Shown: piece by piece, positions 2,274-62,800 of the stretch
Layout of the letters: each line of letters starts with the position of its first letter
Numbering within the stretch: position 1 is the first letter of the stretch
IMG/VR virus record: IMGVR_UViG_3300045973_000529
Location: 62,001-126,000 of that record
Length of the DNA: 64,000 bases
Source of the DNA: a virus
Reading direction: 5' to 3' (one strand)
Notes under the pieces: generated by a model
What the model saw: only the letters and a program-made list of their open reading frames with translations
Database searches by the model: none
Told to the model about the DNA's origin: nothing
Translations under genes and position numbers: made by a program

Positions 2274-2557
2274 GTAAGTCCGAAGGCGTCAAGGACGTCG
2301 TCAAGTGGCTCGAGGAGCAGTGCAAGATCGCCAAGGCAAGCGTCGAGGTTGCCAAGCGCGAGAACTTCGCCATGGGCATGTACGAGGACTGCGGTGACTA
2401 CTACCGTGAGAAGCTCGTCGAGGCTGAGGCCAAGCTGGCGACGCTGGTGTCGGTCAAGATCAGCACCGAGAAGTACATGAAGAAGCTGCGGCATGAGGAA
2501 GAAGAGGCCGCGACTCTCAGAGCCGATCCTTTGAATGACGGATGGAACTACCAGTGA
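2270..2557 (+). CDS. Hypothetical coiled-coil protein, 95 aa
   Basis: Family not recognised. It is Lys/Glu-rich and almost entirely helical, with heptad-like spacing of Ala, Leu and Val (residues 5-70) and an acidic E-E-E-E stretch near the end. The ATG overlaps the end of the CbpA-like gene, and the TGA overlaps the next ATG (TGATG). A purine-rich Shine-Dalgarno lies in front of the start. Confidence 0.7.
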
Positions 2558-3123
2558 TGGACCTCAGCAAGCGATACACGGGCCTGTACAAGGTCATCAG
2601 CGGCGGTCAGACCGGTGCCGATCAGGGCGGGCTGCTTGCGGCTCATCAGCTTGGCGTCCTGACCGGTGGCACGGCTCCGGCCGGTTGGATGACGTCCCGC
2701 GGCCCGCAACCGCTGCTCGAGTGCTTTGGCCTGAAGGCCGAAGGCACGCTCCAGACCCGCACGAAGAAGAACATCAAGGACTCGGGCGCCACCGTCGTGC
2801 TGTCTGGCGACTTGGCTTCGTCCGGGACCGTGCTGACGATCCGGCTTTGCAAGGAACTGAACAAGCCATGTCTGGTGCTCGACATCAACAGTGTCTGTAC
2901 TGCCTTCGGCGACACCGGATTGTTCCCGATGGAGACGTTCGATCAGTTGAGTAGGCCTCTATACGAGTTCCTTCTGCAACACCAGGTGCGCACTCTGAAC
3001 GTCGCTGGAAACCGCGAGCGCTTCGATGATTTGCGCACGACCAAGGCGGTGGCCGGCATCGTCGCCACGGCCCTCTCCTTCCTGGACCTCGACAATCTGC
3101 TCATTCGGGACTCGGACTTGTAA
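2557..3123 (+). CDS. SLOG-superfamily protein, putative molybdenum-carrier/YpsA-like
   Basis: The N-terminus carries K-V-I-S-G-G-Q-T-G-A-D-Q-G-G-L, the nucleotide-binding loop of the YpsA/MoCo-carrier branch of the SLOG (LOG/DprA-like) Rossmann superfamily. It is followed by G-G-T-A-P-A-G-W and, near residue 75, R-T-K-K-N-I-K-D-S-G-A-T, the usual position of the second nucleotide-contact motif. These proteins bind nucleotides or nucleotide-derived ligands; the 'molybdenum carrier' name describes one member only. A start at 2542 would add five residues; the ATG at 2557 fits the TGATG coupling. In a phage it might sense or sequester a signalling nucleotide, but that is inference. Confidence 0.72.
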   Translation: MDLSKRYTGLYKVISGGQTGADQGGLLAAHQLGVLTGGTAPAGWMTSRGPQPLLECFGLKAEGTLQTRTKKNIKDSGATVVLSGDLASSGTVLTIRLCKELNKPCLVLDINSVCTAFGDTGLFPMETFDQLSRPLYEFLLQHQVRTLNVAGNRERFDDLRTTKAVAGIVATALSFLDLDNLLIRDSDL

Positions 3124-3150
3124 CAATAGGCGGTATCCACTCCGCCGTTA
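3121..3150 (+). promoter_or_regulatory. Leader of td with -10-like site and hairpin
   Basis: TAACAAT overlaps the stop of the upstream gene. It is followed by a 5-bp hairpin (GGCGG/CCGCC, 3129-3146) and then GTTACA, 12 bases before the td ATG. Hairpin and GTTACA recur at other promoters in this window, but the -10 is weak here. Confidence 0.35.
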
Positions 3151-3161
3151 CAAGGACCGAC

Positions 3162-4118
3162 ATGACCTCTCTCGACTACTCGCTGTACTCCCCGACGTGG
3201 GAGGATGATTACCTGAATCTGCTCGACACGATCCTCATGTTCGGTGAGGATCGGGCCGATCGAACCGGCACTGGAACCCGCGCGATCTTCGGCGACACGC
3301 TTCGCATCAATCTCGCCGATGGCTTCCCGGCCGTGACCACCAAGAAGCTCGCCTGGAAGGCAATGGCTGCTGAACTGCTCTGGTTCATCGAAGGCAGCGG
3401 TGATGAGCGTCGGCTCTGTGAAATCCAGCACGGTACTCGCGACGATTCGAAGTCCACGGTCTGGACTGCCAATGCGAATGCTCCGTACTGGCTGCCAAAG
3501 GCCAAGTTCCCAGGTGACCTCGGCCGTGTGTACGGTGTGCAGTGGCGTCACTGGAAGAACATCACCTTCCAGGAATCGGGCGACTGGCTCAGCCATCCAG
3601 CCGGTGGTGAGACGCACTTCAATGCCAAGGTCCTCGTTGAGGAAGTTGACCAGATGAAACGCGTCATCGAGACGCTGAAGACGAATCACACTGATCGTCG
3701 GATCATGCTGTCGGCCTGGAACCCAGGTGAGCTGCACCAAATGGCCTTGCCACCATGCCATCTGTTCGCACAGTTCTACCTGAGCAACGATCGCAAGCTC
3801 TCGTGCCAGATGTACATGCGCTCGATCGACACATTCCTCGGGCTGCCGTTCAACATCGCCAGCTACGCACTGCTGACACATCTGATTGCTCACGTGATCG
3901 GTGCTGACGTTGGTGAGTTGATCATGGTGTTGGGCGATACGCACATCTATAAGGACCACATCGAGCAGGTGAACGAGCAACTGAGCCGTGAAGTCAAGAA
4001 GGCGCCGAAGCTTGTGTTCAATCGGCAGGTCACAAGCATTGATGACTTCACCCTGGCTGACTTCGAGCTGGCCGACTACGATCATCACCCTGCAATCAAC
4101 GCGAAGATGAGCACCTGA
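3162..4118 (+). CDS. td: Thymidylate synthase (ThyA type)
   Basis: Converts dUMP to dTMP with methylene-tetrahydrofolate. The family signatures are in order: D-R-T-G-T-G-T-R near residue 30 (folate and phosphate loop), W-x-A-N-A near 105, the catalytic P-P-C-H with Cys199, and the R-S-x-D-x-x-L-G-L-P-F-N-I-A-S-Y block near 225. It ends with the usual dUMP and folate contacts. Length (318 aa) is slightly above the bacterial enzyme because of an insertion around residues 85-140, as in T4 td. Unlike T4 td there is no intron. Its own leader separates it from the gene upstream. It should raise dTTP supply for phage replication. Confidence 0.96.
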   Translation: MTSLDYSLYSPTWEDDYLNLLDTILMFGEDRADRTGTGTRAIFGDTLRINLADGFPAVTTKKLAWKAMAAELLWFIEGSGDERRLCEIQHGTRDDSKSTVWTANANAPYWLPKAKFPGDLGRVYGVQWRHWKNITFQESGDWLSHPAGGETHFNAKVLVEEVDQMKRVIETLKTNHTDRRIMLSAWNPGELHQMALPPCHLFAQFYLSNDRKLSCQMYMRSIDTFLGLPFNIASYALLTHLIAHVIGADVGELIMVLGDTHIYKDHIEQVNEQLSREVKKAPKLVFNRQVTSIDDFTLADFELADYDHHPAINAKMST

Positions 4119-4120
4119 AC

Positions 4121-4477
4121 ATGGGTCACTACCGCGCCGAAATGTGGTGCAACACGTGCAGCAATCATCCCTGCACGTGTACGCCAAAGCCCGAGCCAGT
4201 GCAGTGGCTTGTCGATGACGATGATGTCGTCATGACAACAGCTGCCTTCGATCTGAAATACGCGTCGATCAAGACAAAGTACGGTCCGATTCCCGGATCG
4301 CCGATGCTGAAGCGCATGGGAATGAAGCTGTACCCGTCGAAAGCGGCTGCTGAAGCCGCAATCCCAGCGCTGCTCACTGAAGAGATCGAGCACCGTGCCA
4401 AGAACATCAGAGCTCTCCAGGTGGAACTGAAGAAGCGTCAGATGAAACTGAGACGACTGATGAAGGAGCAAGCATGA
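4121..4477 (+). CDS. Hypothetical protein with N-terminal Cys cluster, 118 aa
   Basis: Family not recognised. Cys10, Cys13, Cys18 and Cys20 form a compact cluster (C-x2-C-x4-C-x-C) that could bind one zinc ion. The C-terminal 45 residues are a basic amphipathic helix (Lys/Arg-rich, coiled-coil like). It starts two bases after the td stop and its ATGA end overlaps the next gene, so the three genes are co-transcribed. Confidence 0.68.
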   Translation: MGHYRAEMWCNTCSNHPCTCTPKPEPVQWLVDDDDVVMTTAAFDLKYASIKTKYGPIPGSPMLKRMGMKLYPSKAAAEAAIPALLTEEIEHRAKNIRALQVELKKRQMKLRRLMKEQA

Positions 4478-4953
4478 CCAAGTTCTACCGCTACTACCGC
4501 CCGATGAAGTACTCCGAGGACCGGGCGACGTTGGACACCCTACCACGAGGCGGTGTCTGTCTGCGGTTCGAAACCCTCGAGGACCGGCCGAACACCATGT
4601 GGTTCACACATGCCCGTTGCCACGAGACGGAGCTTTTCTCGAAGACCACCGCTCGCCAGATCGTCGATCAGCGGGCGACCCTGCTGTATGAACGTCGCTA
4701 TGATCTGCCACTGCTGCCTGCTGCGACCGATCCAGGTGCACTGTTGATGTACGTCATCCAGATGATCCACTGCTGGCAGCCGCTACCAGAGCCGATGTTC
4801 ACGGAGTACCTTGCGAAAGAGTACGAAGAGCTAGCGTCGACGATCCACGGTGTCATCACCCAGAACACGCTCGCGACTATGAAGCAGGAAGCACACACTC
4901 TGCATCTGGCTGCTCTGCAGTACGGAGAGCTCTATGCGAGTCTTGCACGGTAA
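4474..4953 (+). CDS. Hypothetical protein, 159 aa
   Basis: Family not recognised. A Tyr/Arg-rich start (F-Y-R-Y-Y-R-P-M-K-Y) is followed by an alpha/beta region and a long helical C-terminus (residues 110-159). No membrane or catalytic motif is visible. Coupled to the upstream gene by ATGA and overlapping the macro-domain gene by 20 bases. Confidence 0.68.
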   Translation: MTKFYRYYRPMKYSEDRATLDTLPRGGVCLRFETLEDRPNTMWFTHARCHETELFSKTTARQIVDQRATLLYERRYDLPLLPAATDPGALLMYVIQMIHCWQPLPEPMFTEYLAKEYEELASTIHGVITQNTLATMKQEAHTLHLAALQYGELYASLAR

Positions 4954-5425
4954 CATGCTCGAGGAGGTCACCAAAGGGGTGATTCTCCAGCAAGTGAATG
5001 CCCAGGGCGTGATGGGCTCTGGGTTCGCCAAGGCCATTCGGGACAAGTGGCCGGCCGTCTGGGACGAGTATCATCAGTGGTGTCTCCCAAACCCAACTGC
5101 TGCCGAGTCAGCTGCGATGCTCGGCAAAACTCTGCTCGTCGAAGTCGAAGATGGTCTGTTCGTAGCGAACATCGTCGGTCAGAACCGGTTCTATAGGCAG
5201 GGTGAACCACGTGGCACCCGGTTCACCTCGTACGATGCCGTTGATAAGGCTCTCACCGACTTGGCTGAGGTGCTCCAGGGGCTGCCGGTGTCGTTGCATT
5301 TTCCACTTCTGGGCTCGGACCGCGGTGGTGGTCATTGGCCCGTCGTGAAAGAGATCATCAAGCACCGGCTGTCAGGGTTCGAGTTGACCCTGTGGCTGCT
5401 GGCAGGTACAACAGAACCCGCCTAA
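4934..5425 (+). CDS. Macro-domain protein (ADP-ribose / Appr-1''-p processing type)
   Basis: Macro domains bind ADP-ribose; the Poa1-like branch dephosphorylates ADP-ribose 1''-phosphate and other branches reverse ADP-ribosylation or bind O-acetyl-ADP-ribose. Here the strand/loop Q-Q-V-N-A-Q-G-V-M-G-S-G-F-A matches the adenosine- and ribose-binding loop (N-x-x-G-x-M-G-x-G), N-I-V-G-Q follows near residue 78, and a second loop near residue 125 (L-L-G-S-D-R-G-G-G) matches the phosphate-binding P-L-x-G-x-G-x-G-G. At 163 aa it is a single stand-alone domain. Substrate choice cannot be decided from sequence. Functional partners may be the ADP-ribosyltransferase at 39344-40666 and the RNA-end enzymes of this window. 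Confidence 0.88.
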   Translation: MRVLHGNMLEEVTKGVILQQVNAQGVMGSGFAKAIRDKWPAVWDEYHQWCLPNPTAAESAAMLGKTLLVEVEDGLFVANIVGQNRFYRQGEPRGTRFTSYDAVDKALTDLAEVLQGLPVSLHFPLLGSDRGGGHWPVVKEIIKHRLSGFELTLWLLAGTTEPA

Positions 5426-19451: not shown

Positions 19452-20603
19452 ATGTTCCCGAACATCAAGCATCTCTCCGATCTGGTCCCGCACATCCAGG
19501 ACAACCCGCAGATCCGGGTGAAGGTCGAGCCGAATGGCTTCACCGTCGTGTGCTACATGCTGCAGGACGAGGACACCTTCTCGGGTGCCAACGCCGAGTT
19601 CGCAGCCGAGTGCCGCGGTATCACGTTCGACACGAACGGCAAGATCGCGGCTCGGACGCTGCACAAGTTCTTCAACGTCGGCCAGGAAGACAGCACCCGT
19701 CCCGAGGTGATCCGCTGGCAGGACGTCGTTCGCATCATGGACAAGCGTGACGGATCGATGATCACGCCGGTGCTGGTGAACGGCGGCGTGAAGTGCAAGA
19801 CCAAGAAGTCGTTCGACACCAAGGAAGCGGCCCTGGCCGACGAGATCCTGCACCAAATCGAAACCATCGATGGTGCCAAGGACCAGTTCAAGCTCGAATG
19901 GACGCGCAATCTGCTTCGCTTCGGCTACACGCCGACCTTCGAGATCACGTCACCGAAGTTGCCGATCGTGCTGCTGTACGACAAGGACGAACTGACCCTG
20001 CTGCATGTTCGCGAGAACGTGACCGGCCGGTACCTCGACGAAGACGAGGTGAAGGCGCTCGAGCCGCCGTTCCCGATCGTCGAGAACGTGATGCGGCAGT
20101 TCATGCGCCCAGGCGTGCCGGCCAATCTCGTGTCCTGGGACCTGCTCAAGACCGCGGCCGAGACGGCCGAAGGTGTCGAGGGCTGGGTGATCCAGTTCCG
20201 CAATGGCGATATGGTCAAGCTCAAGACGGCCTGGTACTGCGCGCTGCATCACTCGGTGACCTTCACCCGGTGGCGTGACATCGCTCGCTCGGTGGTTGCG
20301 GATCAGTCCGATGACCTGAAGGCGGCGTTCGCGATGACGGGCCGCTCGATCGAGCCGATCCTGTTCGTGGAACGCGCCATCAAGAACAAGATCGCGCTTG
20401 ACCGTGGAACGGCTGAAGTGCATGCACTTATCGGCACGCTGGGCAAGACGGCCAAGGACATGGCGCTCATGCACAAGGGCCATCCGCTGTTCGGCCAGAT
20501 CATGCGGCTGTTCCGTGGTCAGGAAGTGAACTGGATGGAGTTCTACGAGAAGAACCATCTCGACACCGACTGGTCGCTGGAAGTCGTGGGAGAAGAAGCA
20601 TGA
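19452..20603 (+). CDS. rnlA: T4-type RNA ligase 1
   Basis: ATP-dependent ligase that joins 3'-OH and 5'-phosphate RNA ends; T4 Rnl1 reseals tRNA cut by host anticodon nucleases. Start taken at 19452 behind AAGGACATCC. Nucleotidyltransferase motifs: I with the adenylated Lys98 (K-R-D-G-S), the upstream R-G-I-T-F-D, motif III-like F-E-I-T-S-P, motif IV-like E-G-W-V-I-Q-F, and motif V K-L-K-T-A-W-Y. The C-terminal 110 residues are helical as in T4 Rnl1's tRNA-specificity domain. Length (383 aa) is close to T4 (374). No polynucleotide kinase/phosphatase partner is visible in the window. Confidence 0.93.
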   Translation: MFPNIKHLSDLVPHIQDNPQIRVKVEPNGFTVVCYMLQDEDTFSGANAEFAAECRGITFDTNGKIAARTLHKFFNVGQEDSTRPEVIRWQDVVRIMDKRDGSMITPVLVNGGVKCKTKKSFDTKEAALADEILHQIETIDGAKDQFKLEWTRNLLRFGYTPTFEITSPKLPIVLLYDKDELTLLHVRENVTGRYLDEDEVKALEPPFPIVENVMRQFMRPGVPANLVSWDLLKTAAETAEGVEGWVIQFRNGDMVKLKTAWYCALHHSVTFTRWRDIARSVVADQSDDLKAAFAMTGRSIEPILFVERAIKNKIALDRGTAEVHALIGTLGKTAKDMALMHKGHPLFGQIMRLFRGQEVNWMEFYEKNHLDTDWSLEVVGEEA

Positions 20604-37171: not shown

Positions 37172-38047
37172 ATGTCACAAACCGACAAGACCACGCTTGG
37201 CGACCGCATGAAGTCGTATGAGCAACCCACCACCTCGCGCAAGGCCTTCAAGGGCCAGCCGATCATCGCTCGCCTCGATGGCAAGAGCTTCCACACCTTC
37301 TGCAAGGGCCTCAAGCGCCCGTTCGACGAGCGGCTGTCGCAGCTGATGGTGATCGTCATGAAGGAACTCGTTGATCGGTACCAAGCCGTCGTTGGGTACA
37401 CGCAGTCCGACGAGATCACGCTCATGTGGTACACCGCGGCCGACTCGCAGCAGGACTACCCGTTCGACGGCCGGATCCAGAAGCTTGAGAGCCTGCTCGC
37501 TGCGTTCGCCACGGCCGTGTTCAACAAGCACCTCGCCGAGTTCCTTCCCGAGAAGGCGGACCTCCTGCCGATCTTCGACTGCCGCGCCTTCGTCGTGCCA
37601 AACAAGCAAGAAGCCTATCACGCCTTCCTGTGGCGTCAGCAGGACGCGACCAAGAACGCCATCAGCATGGCAGCCCAATCGATGTTCACGCACAAGTCAC
37701 TGCAGGGCCTGCACGGCCCTGAGATGCAGGAAAAGATGTGGAAGGAAAAGGGCGTGAACTTCAACGACTACCCGCCGTTCTTCAAGCGCGGAACTTTCGC
37801 TCGTCGTGCCAAGGTCCGTCGTCAGATGACGGACATGGATTTCGAACGCATCCCCGAGAGCTACCGTCCGGCTGATGGCATGATCGAGCGGACCGAGATC
37901 CAGGCCTTCGACTGCTGGCTGTCACGCGAAGAAGATCCAGTGGCTGTGCTGTTCGATGGCCAGACCCCTGGCATCGAGAAGAAGGCTTGGGTGCCTGGAA
38001 CTGGCAACTTCGCTGACTCTCGCGAGTCGTACCTGAACCACTCCTGA
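37172..38047 (+). CDS. Thg1-like protein (tRNAHis guanylyltransferase family, 3'-5' polymerase), 291 aa
   Basis: Thg1-family enzymes add nucleotides in the 3'-5' direction: eukaryotic Thg1 adds G-1 to tRNAHis, while bacterial and archaeal Thg1-like proteins repair 5'-truncated tRNAs in a template-dependent way. Signatures: an opening M-K-S-Y-E-Q; I-I-A-R-L-D-G-K-S-F-H (metal ligand Asp36); G-Y-T-Q-S-D-E-I-T (Asp80, Glu81); F-D-C-R-A-F-V-V-P near 140; and L-W-R-Q-Q-D-A-T-K-N near 160. The eukaryotic H-I-N-N-L-Y-N sequence is replaced, as in Thg1-like proteins. No tRNA gene is seen in the window, so the substrate is probably host tRNA or tRNAs encoded elsewhere in the phage. Confidence 0.9.
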   Translation: MSQTDKTTLGDRMKSYEQPTTSRKAFKGQPIIARLDGKSFHTFCKGLKRPFDERLSQLMVIVMKELVDRYQAVVGYTQSDEITLMWYTAADSQQDYPFDGRIQKLESLLAAFATAVFNKHLAEFLPEKADLLPIFDCRAFVVPNKQEAYHAFLWRQQDATKNAISMAAQSMFTHKSLQGLHGPEMQEKMWKEKGVNFNDYPPFFKRGTFARRAKVRRQMTDMDFERIPESYRPADGMIERTEIQAFDCWLSREEDPVAVLFDGQTPGIEKKAWVPGTGNFADSRESYLNHS

Positions 38048-56750: not shown

Positions 56751-56807
56751 GTTTGAGGAGACATACACCGCACCTAGGGAACTCCACCGGCACCACCTAA
56801 TGGTCGC

Positions 56808-56816
56808 CACCGTTAC
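56808..56816 (+). promoter_or_regulatory. Orphan ACCGTTACA element
   Basis: ACCGTTACA at 56808-56816 with no clear extended -10 downstream; only a late promoter follows at 56849. It may mark a cryptic or repressed promoter. Confidence 0.4.
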
Positions 56817-56848
56817 AGGTTGGTGATTTCGAGCCATTCAGTCAAGGT

Positions 56849-56856
56849 CTAAATAC
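56849..56856 (+). promoter_or_regulatory. T4-type late promoter
   Basis: CTAAATAC, 22 bases before the 56879 start. Drives the giant virion protein gene. Confidence 0.72.
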
Positions 56857-56878
56857 GGAACTTCGATGTGAATGCGCA

Positions 56879-59800
56879 ATGGCCAAAGACTACCACCTCC
56901 CGTACCTCGATCTGACCAACCTCGTTCCGAGTCAACAGCGGAACCCGATGGTCAAGTCGCTGATCGACAATCTGTTCAACCGGTTCCTGACCCAAGACGA
57001 GTCGGTTCCGCTGTATGGGTATGTGGGAGTGAAGCCAGCGTCAGTTGACGACAGCACTCCTAAGATCATGCAATCAACGGTCGAGCGTGATGTGAACTCA
57101 CTGGTTCCAGTGTTGTCGTTCACCGCTGGACAGGAGACCTTCTCGTACACGCCTCAGGACTTGATCCGCAAGGCAGAGGTGCTTGGTGTTTCAGCTGATC
57201 AGTCGTCATGGCTGTACTCGCAAGGGAACAACTACTGCCCACCGATTGATTTTGACCGGTTCACGAACTTCTTCAACTACTACTGGGTGGCGAAGGCACT
57301 ACCAACGGTGCCGGTTCTGCCGTGGAATCCAACAGCGGCACCTGAGTACTACATCATGGCTCGCCCAGCGCCAGCCGATCTGGACAAGCTGAACGTGCAT
57401 GTGGCGACCACCACGACCGTCGTGCTCACTGGCTCTGGGTACTACGATCAAACTTGGACGGTGACCTTCCTCACCCCAACTACGTTCATGATCCAAGCGA
57501 ACGGCTCCACAATTGGCTTTGCTCCAGGTGAAGATCTGCAAGGACCGTTTATTCTTCCTGATCTGCCACCAGTCAGTGCCCCAGGTCCGTACCCAACGAT
57601 CATCGACACCTTCCAATTCTCCATCGCCTCTTCAGTTGAACCACTGTTGATCTTCAACGTCGTGCGTGATGCGATCTTGGACAACAGCGGTGGACCATAC
57701 GCTTACGAAGGTTTCGAAGCGGGTGATGCTTTCCTAATCGACGCCCCATTCCTGTCGAGCACGTACTCCGTGTCGTTCAGCGGCGGCCCTGGTCAAAAGG
57801 GCAAGATCTCGGGTGTGAACTCACTGGATACGTTCCAGACAATTGACGGTCGTGTGCTGCAGGTCAATGACCGAGTGCTTGTTCGCCACGGTTCCCCGAG
57901 TGACCAAGGCATCTACGCCGTTCAATCAGGTGCCTGGGTCCGCACAGCTGATTTCGACGACAGCACTGGAACTGCCCAGGCGGGTGCTCGTGTCTTTGTT
58001 GTCAACGGCAGCCAAGCTGATACGCTGTGGGTGTCCTTTGCTTCGGGCGGCGGGTTTGGTTGGACGTCAACCGTCAACACTGTGTCGAACACGAGCAACT
58101 GGCAAGAGGGCAACTACTGGGTGCACCGTGATGCGCTGACTGGAGTTGACCTGACCAAGATCGTTCAGGCGTCTCGCCCGATCATTGAGTTCTCGGCGAA
58201 CCTCAAGCTGAACACTCGCGTCGCAAGCACCGGTCTTCCGACTGATACGGGTGGCACACTGTACGAGCAGGTCAAGACTGAGTTCAACCAGGCGCCGCTG
58301 TTCGATCTGTACCGGTATGATGGCAGCCACGCGCACTGTGTGTCGCCGATCTTCTTCTATGTCGAAGACGCGACTGAAGCTATCGACACTGTGCTGCAAC
58401 GACGTGTCAAGCACAGCTCCAATCTGTCAGGGGACTTCCTCTTTGATCACGGTCTGCGCGACACTGCTGGTCAGTTGTTCTACAAGGACACCAGCGGAGC
58501 ATTGCACTCGATTTGGCACCCTGGATACTCATCGCCGTCAGTCATCGACACGGTGTACGAAGGTGTTGGCGCTGGTACCATTGTGCTCGGCGCTGGAGCC
58601 AATGCCTTCGCGTCGCAACAGATCTGGACGCTGGTTGCTGAGACACCAACCACCTTCAGCGTCTCTGGCTCGAAGAACAAGACCCTGCCTACCCCTTACG
58701 ATGTCTTGACGGTTGGCACTCCGTATTCAAACGGGCTGTTCAACGCGACCCTCTTTGCGGGTGCTATTCCATTCGTGGCAGGTGACACTTACCAGTTCAG
58801 CTTCGGGAACTTCGAGACGACTCGGTACGTGTACCGTGAGACGAACAACCAGCTGTACGATCTGTTCGGTGGTCCTGCACTCGATTCTGATGGCATTGGC
58901 GCATGGCAGACTCCACGGATGTTCTTCCACAACTTTGCAGCTGCCAGTGGTGGTGAACTTCCGGAGGGCACGCTGTACAGCCACTTCCGAGGAATCCTTG
59001 CCAATCAACTGCCTGGAGCAGTGCAAGACAATGCGTTCGGTGGTTCCATCAAGTTGTGGTCTGAGCAAGAGAACTTGCTCGCCGCGCTGCTGATGCAGCG
59101 TGATGTGACCCCAATCAGCATGATCGACATGGCTCAACAGCAGTACCAAGTCGCGTTGAACTCTGTCACTGACATCTACCTGTCGAACATCTTGAAGTAC
59201 TTCAGCGAAGTTGAAGTGCTGAACCGGCCGTCTGACACGGCCGAGCTGCTTGATTACATCTTGGCGATCCGGGTCCAAGACAATGAAGTACGTACCGTGC
59301 TGTACGACAGCACCTCACCGGTACCTGGCTTCCCGGCAACGCTGCCGCAACTCGGTGTGCTGCCACTGGTCTTGCCTGGAGCCGTGTTTGACGATGAGCT
59401 CGGTGCGACGCTCTTCCAACACCATGATGGTCATCTGAGCTCGTTCTTCGAGCAGACCCCTGCATTCCGTGACCAGTTCCTCGGAGCAAACACGACCATT
59501 GTTCGCTCTGATGGTCTCGTGACACCAGCAGTTGGCTCATACACGACCACCGCTCCAGCAATGCCGTACAAGGGTCTGTTGTGGCAGTACCCAGGTGTGG
59601 ACACCGAGTTCCGCGTCTTTGACGTGGTGTCTGACTCCTTCATTGCTCCTGCTGCCGCTGGCCTCGTGACTGGCGACTATTGGTACAACCGCGGTGTGAA
59701 CATCCTGTATCGCTGGGCTGGCGCATGGGTCGTTGAACCGAACATGCTGGCTCCTTGGGTCACTATCAACATCGCTGAGCTGCTGAATGATCTCATCGAA

Positions 59801-62800
59801 GCTGTTGAGACCCGCCTGTACTACGGCATCTCGTCTGCTCAGCGACAGTACTTCTCTGCCAGCGATGTCAAGACCGCTGTCAATGGACCATTGGGTACAC
59901 AGCTGCAGCGTGAGCTCGCGACCTGGGCGGCGCAGAATCAGTTTGACCCGTTGGCACCTGACTTCGTGAGCACTGACGCATTCACGTGGAACTACAGCTC
60001 TAGCACGCTCATGGCCGCGATGACGCCGCCGTTTCCAGCTCGCTGGTTTGACGTTCTACGCGCCCACCAGGCAACGTTCGGCGCGCTGGTGATTCCGACC
60101 GCTCGCCCAAATCTCGAGCCGTGGAAGCTGCTCGGGAACCCTACCAAGCCATCGACTTGGGATACGACGTGGAAGAATCCTGTCACTCCAAGCGACGTGG
60201 CTGCTGATGCTTCGTACGCAAACAGCTGGAACGTGACGGTGGTGAAGTACTCGGCAACAAACATCACCACCGCGTTGACTGGGCTTCCAACGATCGACGG
60301 CGTCGTTCTGTCAGCTGGACAGGCCGTGCTATTGGTCAGTGAAGGTGTCGCCGCCAACAATGGGGTTTGGGTCGTCTCCTCTGGTCCTTGGACTCGCAGC
60401 GCTGTGGTGCCAATGACACTGCACACGGTGGTCACCGTCGATCGTGGTACGCTCTTCAGTGGCACCTCATGGGCGCTGACAACGGTTACTCCACTGACGT
60501 TCACGCAAATTCGACTGTGGAAGTCGACGATGTGGACATCCATTGCTGCATCACGTCCAACTTTGAAGCTCTCTGTCGATGTGAATCGCGATGCTCTGCT
60601 GCCACCGTACGTGTCGGCTTCGCTCCCGTGGTCGTCGAACGCACTGACAACCACGATGCCGTCGAATCCGTCAGCAGCATACACCTTCGGCCAGAACTCA
60701 CCAGTTGAAACCGTCTGGAAGAAGACGGTCGACTATCGGTATGCCCTTGCGCGTGCTCTCTTCCGTTCAGCACCACTGTCGTTCCTTGGGAACTGCTGGG
60801 GCTTCGAGTGGCAAGAGGTCGATGGCATCCTGTACGACGGCTTCGACATGGCAATGCCAGGGCAACCGAACTTCAGGCTCCATGGTGACACCATCAGCGA
60901 CGTGACCAGAACCGCTCCTTTCACCGCTGGGCTCATCACCAGCACCGCTGCTTACACGCTGACCATCAAGCATGACGGGTACACTGCAGCTCGTCGTCAG
61001 GCGTTCTCTGTGTATGACCAGAACGGTGTGTTCGTGACGACACTGCTTGAGGGTGTTGCCACTTCGATGTCCAATGCTGGCTTCACCTTCACGAACGTGA
61101 AGATCGAAGACGAAGGCAAGCCATTCCGTGTCGGTGACACTTTCACCGTGACTGGCAGCGCAAACGGCACCGGTCTCTCTGCCGTGCTGACACAGGCGAA
61201 CTACCACCAGATCAATGGCTTTGGCCAGACGTTCACACAAGCTCTGCGTGCCTCGAGCATCGACACCAGCGCTGGGTACGCTATTCAGGCCTTCAGGAAC
61301 TTCAACGTCAATCTCGGTTACCGCGCTGGTGGCCTCGTGAACACTGATGATCTGCGTGTGTACTCTGAGAGCGTTGAGCTTCCAAGCTCGTCGTATCAGC
61401 TGCGCTTCAAGAAGTCACAGTACGCGAACGATCTTTGGCTACAAGCCCTCCGTATCACCGTGGTGCAGCCAGGGGCGGCTACCGTTCAGGGTGATCGGTA
61501 CTATCCGGCTGGTGATGCCAGTGACTGGGTGTTCCGCATTGAAGGGTACAACACCCGGTATCTCGGACTGCAGTACTACCCGCTCGGTGGCGAGTACAGC
61601 ACCTTCAATGCGCTGAGCAAGGCACACACTACTCTTGCGTGGAAGCACCACTCTGACAAGCTTGGCACCCCAATCAGCACACAACTACCGCTGATCGTTA
61701 CTGGGCTGCAGAACGTCGTGAACATTCTGTTTGGCTACGCACTGAAGCTTGAGGAAGACGGCTGGGTGTTCAACGATCCAGATGCCTCGAACATCGACGA
61801 AGCGACTGGTCGTGTCCGGAACTGGCAGCTCGAAATCGAGAAGCTGGTGGATGCAGTGTACACTGGTCTGACGTTTGGTCAGGGTCATGTCTGCAATCCG
61901 TTCATTGACAAGGTGTGGCTCCAACAGCCAACAGGACTGTTGGCATCGTTCAGTGACACATCGCTGTTTGATGTGCATGCGCACCCAGCAGTGTTCGACA
62001 CTCTTGGGGTGAAGCTCAAGACCGATGATCTGACGGTGCTGCGTCAGCGCGGTGTTTCGCGTATCAGCGCTTCAGTTCCAATGTTCAGTGTGCACGCACA
62101 GGTCGATGAGTACGAGCACTTGTTCGTGTTCAATGACCTCTCATCGCCAAGCACAGGTGAAGGCACGATCTACGATCCGTTCTCGGGTGCTCGAGTTGTG
62201 ATGCTGAAGTTGAACGGTCGTCGTCAAGGACCTGGTACCATGCGGCCTGAGTTTGGTGGTCACTACATGTCAGGTGATGAAGTTCGTAAGAACTTCCAAG
62301 CTGCAACTCAGACGATTTCGAAGTACTATGACGCGGATGCAGTGTTCGAAGATGAGCTCAGCACCCGTCACGCGTTGGCGCTGCTCGGCTTCTCACCCAA
62401 GCAGTACATGACTGATCTCGATCTGAACAACAACACGCAGTTCAACTTCTGGCGTGGTCTGATCCAGATGAAGGGAACGAACGCCTCGATCGGTGCGTTC
62501 CTGAACAACGACCGCTTCGAAGACGCAAAGATCGACGAGTACTGGGCGTACAAGGTCGCTGAGTACGGTGACTCGCGCTCAAAGATCTTCCCTGAACTGA
62601 AGCTCACGGTTGATGACACCCTGCAGCAGTTCACGAAGTTCTTGTTTGACGACGCACCTGCCGCTGACTTCACTTCTTTCGTGCTGATCAAGTCAAGTGA
62701 CGAGACACGTTGGTTCACGCTTGACGACCTGTCTGACACCCCTGTGACCTTCGAGGCACAGGTTGTTGGCACGTACAGCGCGGATGTTAGCCCAGCGACC

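What the first reader, a model, noticed from the sequence alone, without database searches (positions are those of the whole stretch)
4934..5425. Stand-alone macro domain in a phage that also has an ART-fold gene
The macro domain has both nucleotide-binding loops (G-V-M-G-S-G and L-G-S-D-R-G-G-G). Together with the ART-fold protein it could form a write/erase pair, or it could remove host ADP-ribose marks used in defence (as in DarTG-type systems, where a macro domain reverses DNA ADP-ribosylation). It sits directly behind a pyrimidine-synthesis gene, which may be chance.
Basis: partly seen in the sequence, partly recalled or inferred. Interest (0 to 1): 0.6.

Follow-up and report, generated by a model that had tools for sequence, protein, structure and literature searches.

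The report
Jumbo-phage ADP-ribose eraser (macrodomain)
The gene is a real but common kind of phage enzyme that should clip ADP-ribose off other molecules; it is not a partner of the phage's own ADP-ribose-adding gene, and in its closest relatives it sits instead near an RNA-repair enzyme (KptA) that makes ADP-ribose by-products.

Summary
In detail: ORF 4934-5425 (+) is a stand-alone macrodomain (predicted model pLDDT 95; best solved matches BT1257, SCO6735, TARG1, Poa1p, DarG). The same phage record has an ART-fold (PARP-like) gene 34 kb away on the other strand. The proposed write/erase pair is not supported: the ART gene is missing from nearly all searched macro-bearing relatives, including the two nearest. 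The macrodomain is of the Gln-type, ALC1-like class. Across 59 diverse phage homologues only N22, G30, Y46 and Q83 never vary; N22 and Q83 match the Asn27 and Gln85 that SCO6735 needs to remove ADP-ribose. The catalytic Lys of DarG/TARG1 is absent. The gene lies in a conserved jumbo-phage locus, SLOG-[KptA]-thyA-unknown ORF-macro. In its clade of 11, KptA (an ART-fold RNA 2'-phosphotransferase whose product is ADP-ribose cyclic phosphate) is in that locus in 7 and elsewhere in one more record; the window lacks it at the slot. Most likely it hydrolyses ADP-ribose derivatives for clean-up or counter-defence; the substrate is undetermined. Macrodomains occur in 56% of jumbo phages, and a KptA-macro link was already proposed: a new member of a known kind.

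The parts
4934..5425 (+). Stand-alone macrodomain, 163 aa, ALC1-like, Gln-type (N22, Q83)
4924..4929 (+). Ribosome-binding motif (GGAG) of the macro gene, inside the upstream ORF
   Evidence: sequence; inferred
4474..4953 (+). Conserved ORF of unknown function (FYRY...RGGxCLRFE...ELFSK), overlaps the macro start by 20 bases; kept next to the macrodomain in its clade
   Evidence: no Pfam, PHROG, NCBIfam or PADLOC match
3162..4118 (+). thyA, thymidylate synthase; conserved neighbour
   Evidence: PF00303 E 6.3e-98; linkage
2557..3123 (+). cpYpsA-type SLOG domain protein, conserved neighbour
   Evidence: PF12694 E 4.2e-26 on ORF 2542-3123; linkage
3124..3161 (.). 38-base junction where most clade members carry kptA; no kptA here
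39344..40666 (-). PARP-like ART-fold gene (440 aa, His200 and Tyr237 present, third catalytic residue uncertain); judged not to be the macrodomain's dedicated partner

Best explanation
The gene makes a small soluble hydrolase that binds ADP-ribose in the macrodomain cleft and removes whatever is attached to its distal ribose. Asn22 and Gln83 would hold the distal ribose as Asn27 and Gln85 do in SCO6735, and the long loop after Gln83 would clamp the substrate. It belongs to a conserved jumbo-phage NAD/nucleotide locus (SLOG, thyA, an unknown ORF, usually kptA), not to a write/erase pair with the phage's PARP-like gene. Most likely job: clearing ADP-ribose derivatives formed during infection, by KptA-type RNA repair (ADP-ribose 1''-phosphates or ADP-ribosylated ends) and/or by host ADP-ribosylating or NAD-signalling defences. 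Shown: gene, predicted fold, class, conserved catalytic pair, conserved locus, co-occurrence with KptA. Inferred: hydrolase activity, substrate, role in infection.
For: Model pLDDT 95.1; nearest solved folds BT1257 Z 20.7, TARG1 19.0, Poa1p 19.0, SCO6735 18.1, DarG 18.1. Only N22, G30, Y46 and Q83 are invariant in 59 diverse phage homologues; Q83 aligns with SCO6735 Gln85 and N22 with Asn27, both shown by mutation to be needed (PMC9411070). The loop after Gln83 is long, as in SCO6735/BT1257 (PMC9411070). Locus conserved in about 17 viral contigs. In the window's clade (11 rows, support 100/99) kptA is in the locus in 7 and elsewhere in the record in one more. Among macro records over 250 kb, 7 of 8 thyA-linked against 2 of 18 others carry KptA (Fisher p 0.0004). 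Five of six named KptA phage records searched also carry a macrodomain.
Against: No activity is shown. The window record itself has no kptA in 190 kb (partial record) and no NADAR; 2H was not found in it and only weakly in 2 of 13 records of the group. SCO6735 Lys34 (needed for DNA activity) is Ser29 here, and Gly128 is Asp129, where an acidic mutant of SCO6735 loses activity. Poa1p His23 is Gln19 here. KptA is absent from most macro records outside this clade, so it cannot be the general partner. The records are related, and G049 was found through KptA, so the Fisher value overstates the independence.
Confidence: 0.7

Rival explanations
1. Counter-defence eraser: it removes ADP-ribose from phage DNA (or host proteins) put there by DarT-type or other host ART toxins, in the way SCO6735 reverses DarT. 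(A narrower version of the best explanation.)
For: SCO6735, which shares the Asn/Gln pair and the long loop, cleaves thymidine-linked ADP-ribose and protects E. coli from DarT (PMC9411070). PADLOC and NCBIfam give DarG as the nearest named model, well below the NCBIfam cut-off. DarTG is a known anti-phage defence (PMC11481870).
Against: SCO6735 Lys34 is Ser29 and Gly128 is Asp129 here; DarG catalytic Lys is Gln83. The known phage anti-DarT protein AdfB is a 77-aa antitoxin thought to act by direct interaction, not an eraser. The conserved neighbours are nucleotide and RNA-repair genes, not defence genes.
Confidence: 0.35
2. KptA-pathway clean-up enzyme: it dephosphorylates or opens ADP-ribose 1''-phosphate species, or removes ADP-ribose from phosphate ends, left by phage KptA (Poa1p-like job). 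(A narrower version of the best explanation.)
For: KptA in the record of 8 of 11 members of the window's clade, 7 of them in the same locus; five of six named KptA phage records have a macrodomain; Poa1p is among the nearest solved folds, Z 19; the KptA-then-Macro step was proposed for jumbo phages (PMC7824862).
Against: Window record lacks kptA; Poa1p His23 and Ser30 are Gln19 and Val26; SCO6735 is reported inactive on 5'-phospho-ADP-ribose ends (PMC11833690); KptA absent from most other macro-bearing records.
Confidence: 0.35
3. Write/erase pair with the phage's own PARP-like ART.
For: Both genes are in one record, and a second ART copy lies next to a Nudix gene in the same record.
Against: 34 kb apart on opposite strands; ART absent from nearly all macro records, including the two nearest; the macrodomain is kept in the lineage without it.
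Confidence: 0.06
4. Non-catalytic ADP-ribose sensor or sponge.
For: Asp129 replaces the Gly128-equivalent of SCO6735; some macrodomains only bind (PMC9503650).
Against: The catalytic pair N22/Q83 is invariant in 59 homologues and Asp at 129 recurs in 13 of them.
Confidence: 0.12

Closest known systems
SCO6735 / BT1257 macrodomains (ALC1-like, Gln type; PDB 5e3b, 2fg1)
   Same: Fold, Asn and Gln catalytic pair, long mobile loop; best sequence and structure matches
   Different: Lys34, Val25, Gly128 not kept (Ser29, Gln20, Asp129); first loop reads NAQGVMGSG, close to DarG, not NDLGGWGKG
DarG macrodomain (DNA ADP-ribosyl glycohydrolase)
   Same: ALC1-like fold and the NxxGVMGxG first loop
   Different: No catalytic Lys (Gln83), no C-terminal DarT-binding half, no DarT beside it or in the record
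Poa1p (ADP-ribose 1''-phosphate phosphatase)
   Same: Fold (Z 19) and a possible place downstream of a KptA/Tpt1 step
   Different: 18% identity; His23 and Ser30 not kept; Poa1p has no Gln at the Q83 position
Phage macrodomains, PHROG 335, e.g. Escherichia phage 121Q gp544, Salmonella phage Munch, RaK2 (annotated as Appr-1-p processing or ADP-ribose binding)
   Same: Same family: stand-alone, 30-39% identical, same invariant residues
   Different: In 121Q and Munch the neighbours are Nudix, glutaredoxin/thioredoxin and neck genes, not SLOG-KptA-thyA

Membership tests
ALC1-like macrodomain class | Macro fold with nearest solved structures in the ALC1/TARG1/DarG/SCO6735 group | tested here: met
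ALC1-like macrodomain class | Conserved Asn in the first loop (of most active macrodomains) | tested here: met
   N22 invariant, aligned with SCO6735 Asn27
SCO6735-like (Gln-type) hydrolase | Gln in place of the DarG/TARG1 catalytic Lys | tested here: met
   Q83 invariant, aligned with Gln85
SCO6735-like (Gln-type) hydrolase | Long mobile loop after Gln | tested here: met
   Loop at least as long as in SCO6735, longer than DarG
SCO6735-like (Gln-type) hydrolase | Val or Ile two residues before Asn (Val25) | tested here: not met
   Gln20
SCO6735-like (Gln-type) hydrolase | Lys34 (needed for DNA activity) and Gly128 | tested here: not met
   Ser29 and Asp129
DarG antitoxin | Catalytic Lys80 | tested here: not met
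   Gln83
DarG antitoxin | C-terminal DarT-binding domain and adjacent darT | tested here: not met
   163 aa only; no DarT model hit in the record
Poa1p phosphatase | His23 and Ser30 (positions mutated in PDB entries 6lfs and 6lft) | tested here: not met
   Gln19 and Val26; that these residues are catalytic was not read from a paper
Any ADP-ribosyl hydrolase | Enzyme activity on a named substrate | not testable with these tools
   needs purified protein
Phage macrodomain family PHROG 335 | Profile match | tested here: met
   E 4.9e-31
Write/erase pair with the window's ART | Conserved co-occurrence or linkage of the two genes | tested here: not met

The most novel reading that the evidence does not exclude
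A clade of uncultured jumbo phages carries a compact NAD-linked module (SLOG, KptA, unknown FYRY protein, Gln-type macrodomain, with thyA) in which the macrodomain processes the ADP-ribose phosphates made by the phage's own RNA-repair enzyme. This would be the first Gln-type macrodomain tied to that substrate, kept after loss or relocation of KptA because it also counters host ADP-ribosylation.
Probability: 0.2. Interest if true: 0.5.

Novelty: new member of a known kind. Interest (0 to 1): 0.3.

Why it matters
Phage macrodomains are very common (56% of jumbo phages, PMC9503650). I found no published substrate for any of them in the papers read here, but the search was limited. This clade gives a testable handle: a conserved locus with an ART-fold enzyme of known chemistry (KptA), natural members with and without it, and a catalytic pair shared with the characterised enzyme SCO6735. 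It could tell whether phage macrodomains serve RNA repair, anti-DarT counter-defence, or both.

Tried and rejected
Close-relative scans of viral contigs with P0001 or P0002 alone found nothing; relatives came through the DNA polymerase and alignments. No DNA-level match to named phages. AlphaFold2 of the ART (P0002) from a single sequence failed (pLDDT 35), so its catalytic third residue is undecided. DarT as a viral partner: 0 of 50 records. NADAR and 2H as partners: absent in the own record, rare in relatives. Bacterial relatives (59 loci): no KptA, SLOG, thyA or PARP-like gene within 5 kb. The unknown 159-aa neighbour has no match above chance. Rfam and tRNA scans of the window were empty.

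Full report
Observation. ORF 4934-5425 (+) encodes 163 aa with a GGAG motif just upstream of its ATG; it overlaps the previous ORF by 20 bases. It matches PHROG 335 (E 4.9e-31) and, in the PDB, BT1257, SCO6735 and DarG. A 60-member phage profile widens this to Poa1p and TARG1. Pfam's Macro model misses this member but finds 52 of 59 relatives. AlphaFold2 with 59 homologues gives pLDDT 95.1 and pTM 0.90; the nearest solved folds are BT1257 (Z 20.7), TARG1 (19.0), Poa1p (19.0), SCO6735 (18.1) and DarG (18.1). Codon positions differ 0.31/0.24/0.60 from the nearest relative, as for a gene under protein constraint.

Genome. The window is part of a 190,499-base virus record. Its DNA polymerase is nearest to jumbo T4-like phages (XacN1, RAS14/CM1, Munch, 121Q) and to two uncultured contigs, G001 (310,728 bases) and G002 (113,862 bases). 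At least 307 named phage records hold a relative of the macrodomain, all under 60% identity. A published survey already reported macrodomains in 56% of jumbo phages (PMC9503650).

The ART-fold gene. Window 39344-40666 (-) matches Pfam PARP at E 2.6e-6, over its cut-off, with His200 and Tyr237 in place; the third catalytic residue is uncertain. A paralogue lies near 170 kb of the same record, next to a Nudix gene. PARP-like genes in a few jumbo phages are known (PMC7824862). P0002 is absent from G001 and G002; among 49 macro-bearing viral records other than its own only one weak hit was found. So this ART is not the macrodomain's standing partner.

The locus. In the relatives the macrodomain sits in a conserved gene order: DnaJ, cpYpsA-type SLOG, [KptA], thyA, an unknown 'FYRY' ORF, macro. 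About 17 contigs show the thyA-macro linkage, and their macrodomains fall into two supported clades (11 rows at 100/99 and 7 rows at 100/93). So the thyA neighbourhood is a lineage feature, not chance. KptA, an ART-fold RNA 2'-phosphotransferase that releases ADP-ribose 1''-2''-cyclic phosphate, is in the locus in 7 of the 11 members of the window's clade and elsewhere in the record of one more (G005); the other three are the window record (partial), a 93-kb contig and a 7.5-kb contig. In the window only 38 bases separate SLOG and thyA, so kptA is missing from its slot. Among macro records over 250 kb, 7 of 8 thyA-linked and 2 of 18 others carry KptA (Fisher p 0.0004). These records are related and one (G049) was found through KptA, so the value is descriptive. 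In the reverse direction five of six named KptA phage records carry a macrodomain, against a published base rate of 56% for jumbo phages. Processing of KptA products by macrodomains in jumbo phages was proposed earlier (PMC7824862).

Catalysis. Over 59 phage homologues only N22, G30, Y46 and Q83 are invariant. By alignment Q83 is SCO6735 Gln85 and N22 is Asn27. In SCO6735, Q85A abolishes activity on DNA and protein and N27S nearly abolishes activity on DNA; Gln85 takes the place of the catalytic Lys of TARG1 and DarG (PMC9411070). The long mobile loop typical of that subclass is present. Against a full match: Val25 is Gln20, Lys34 is Ser29 and Gly128 is Asp129; Poa1p His23 is Gln19. The protein is therefore an ALC1-like, Gln-type macrodomain, but not a demonstrated SCO6735 orthologue, DarG or Poa1p.

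Mechanism. Most likely it hydrolyses ADP-ribose conjugates or ADP-ribose phosphates. Two uses fit about equally: clean-up after KptA-type repair and counter-defence against host ADP-ribosylation or NAD signalling. DarT was not found in any of 50 macro records, as expected if DarT is the host's weapon, so this does not decide. The only phage anti-DarT protein read about in detail here, AdfB, is a 77-aa antitoxin thought to act by direct interaction and not a macrodomain (PMC11481870).

Verdict. Real and well supported as an ADP-ribose eraser by fold and residues; ordinary as a phage gene; the write/erase pairing is not supported; the KptA-linked locus is the most useful new detail.

Noticed in passing
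window 4474-4953 (+): Conserved ORF of unknown function directly upstream of, and overlapping, the macrodomain in this phage clade; pattern FYRY...GGxCLRFE...FSK; no database match.
   Followed up: partly
window 39344-41486 (-) and L013 1174-2564 (-): Two PARP/KptA-like ART-fold paralogues in one phage record. One is next to a Nudix gene; the other stands at the end of a three-gene minus-strand run opposite a Nudix gene at 41573-42061. N-termini look like those of head-packaged proteins (recalled, untested).
   Followed up: partly
L108 166-2175: A 669-aa ORF in viral record G037 with a similar ART-fold stretch near its C-terminal end (AYHGT ... AYEGTI).
   Followed up: no
window 37172-38047 (+) and 19452-20603 (+): tRNA-His guanylyltransferase-like (Thg1) gene and T4-type RNA ligase gene in the same phage, further RNA-repair functions.
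   Followed up: no
L011 6359-7177 (+): GIY-YIG-like homing endonuclease ORF inserted between thyA and the FYRY ORF in relative G001 (by reading, not searched).
   Followed up: no
window 56801-64000 (+): Open frame of 2400 codons running off the window end; its start matches virion structural protein families.
   Followed up: no
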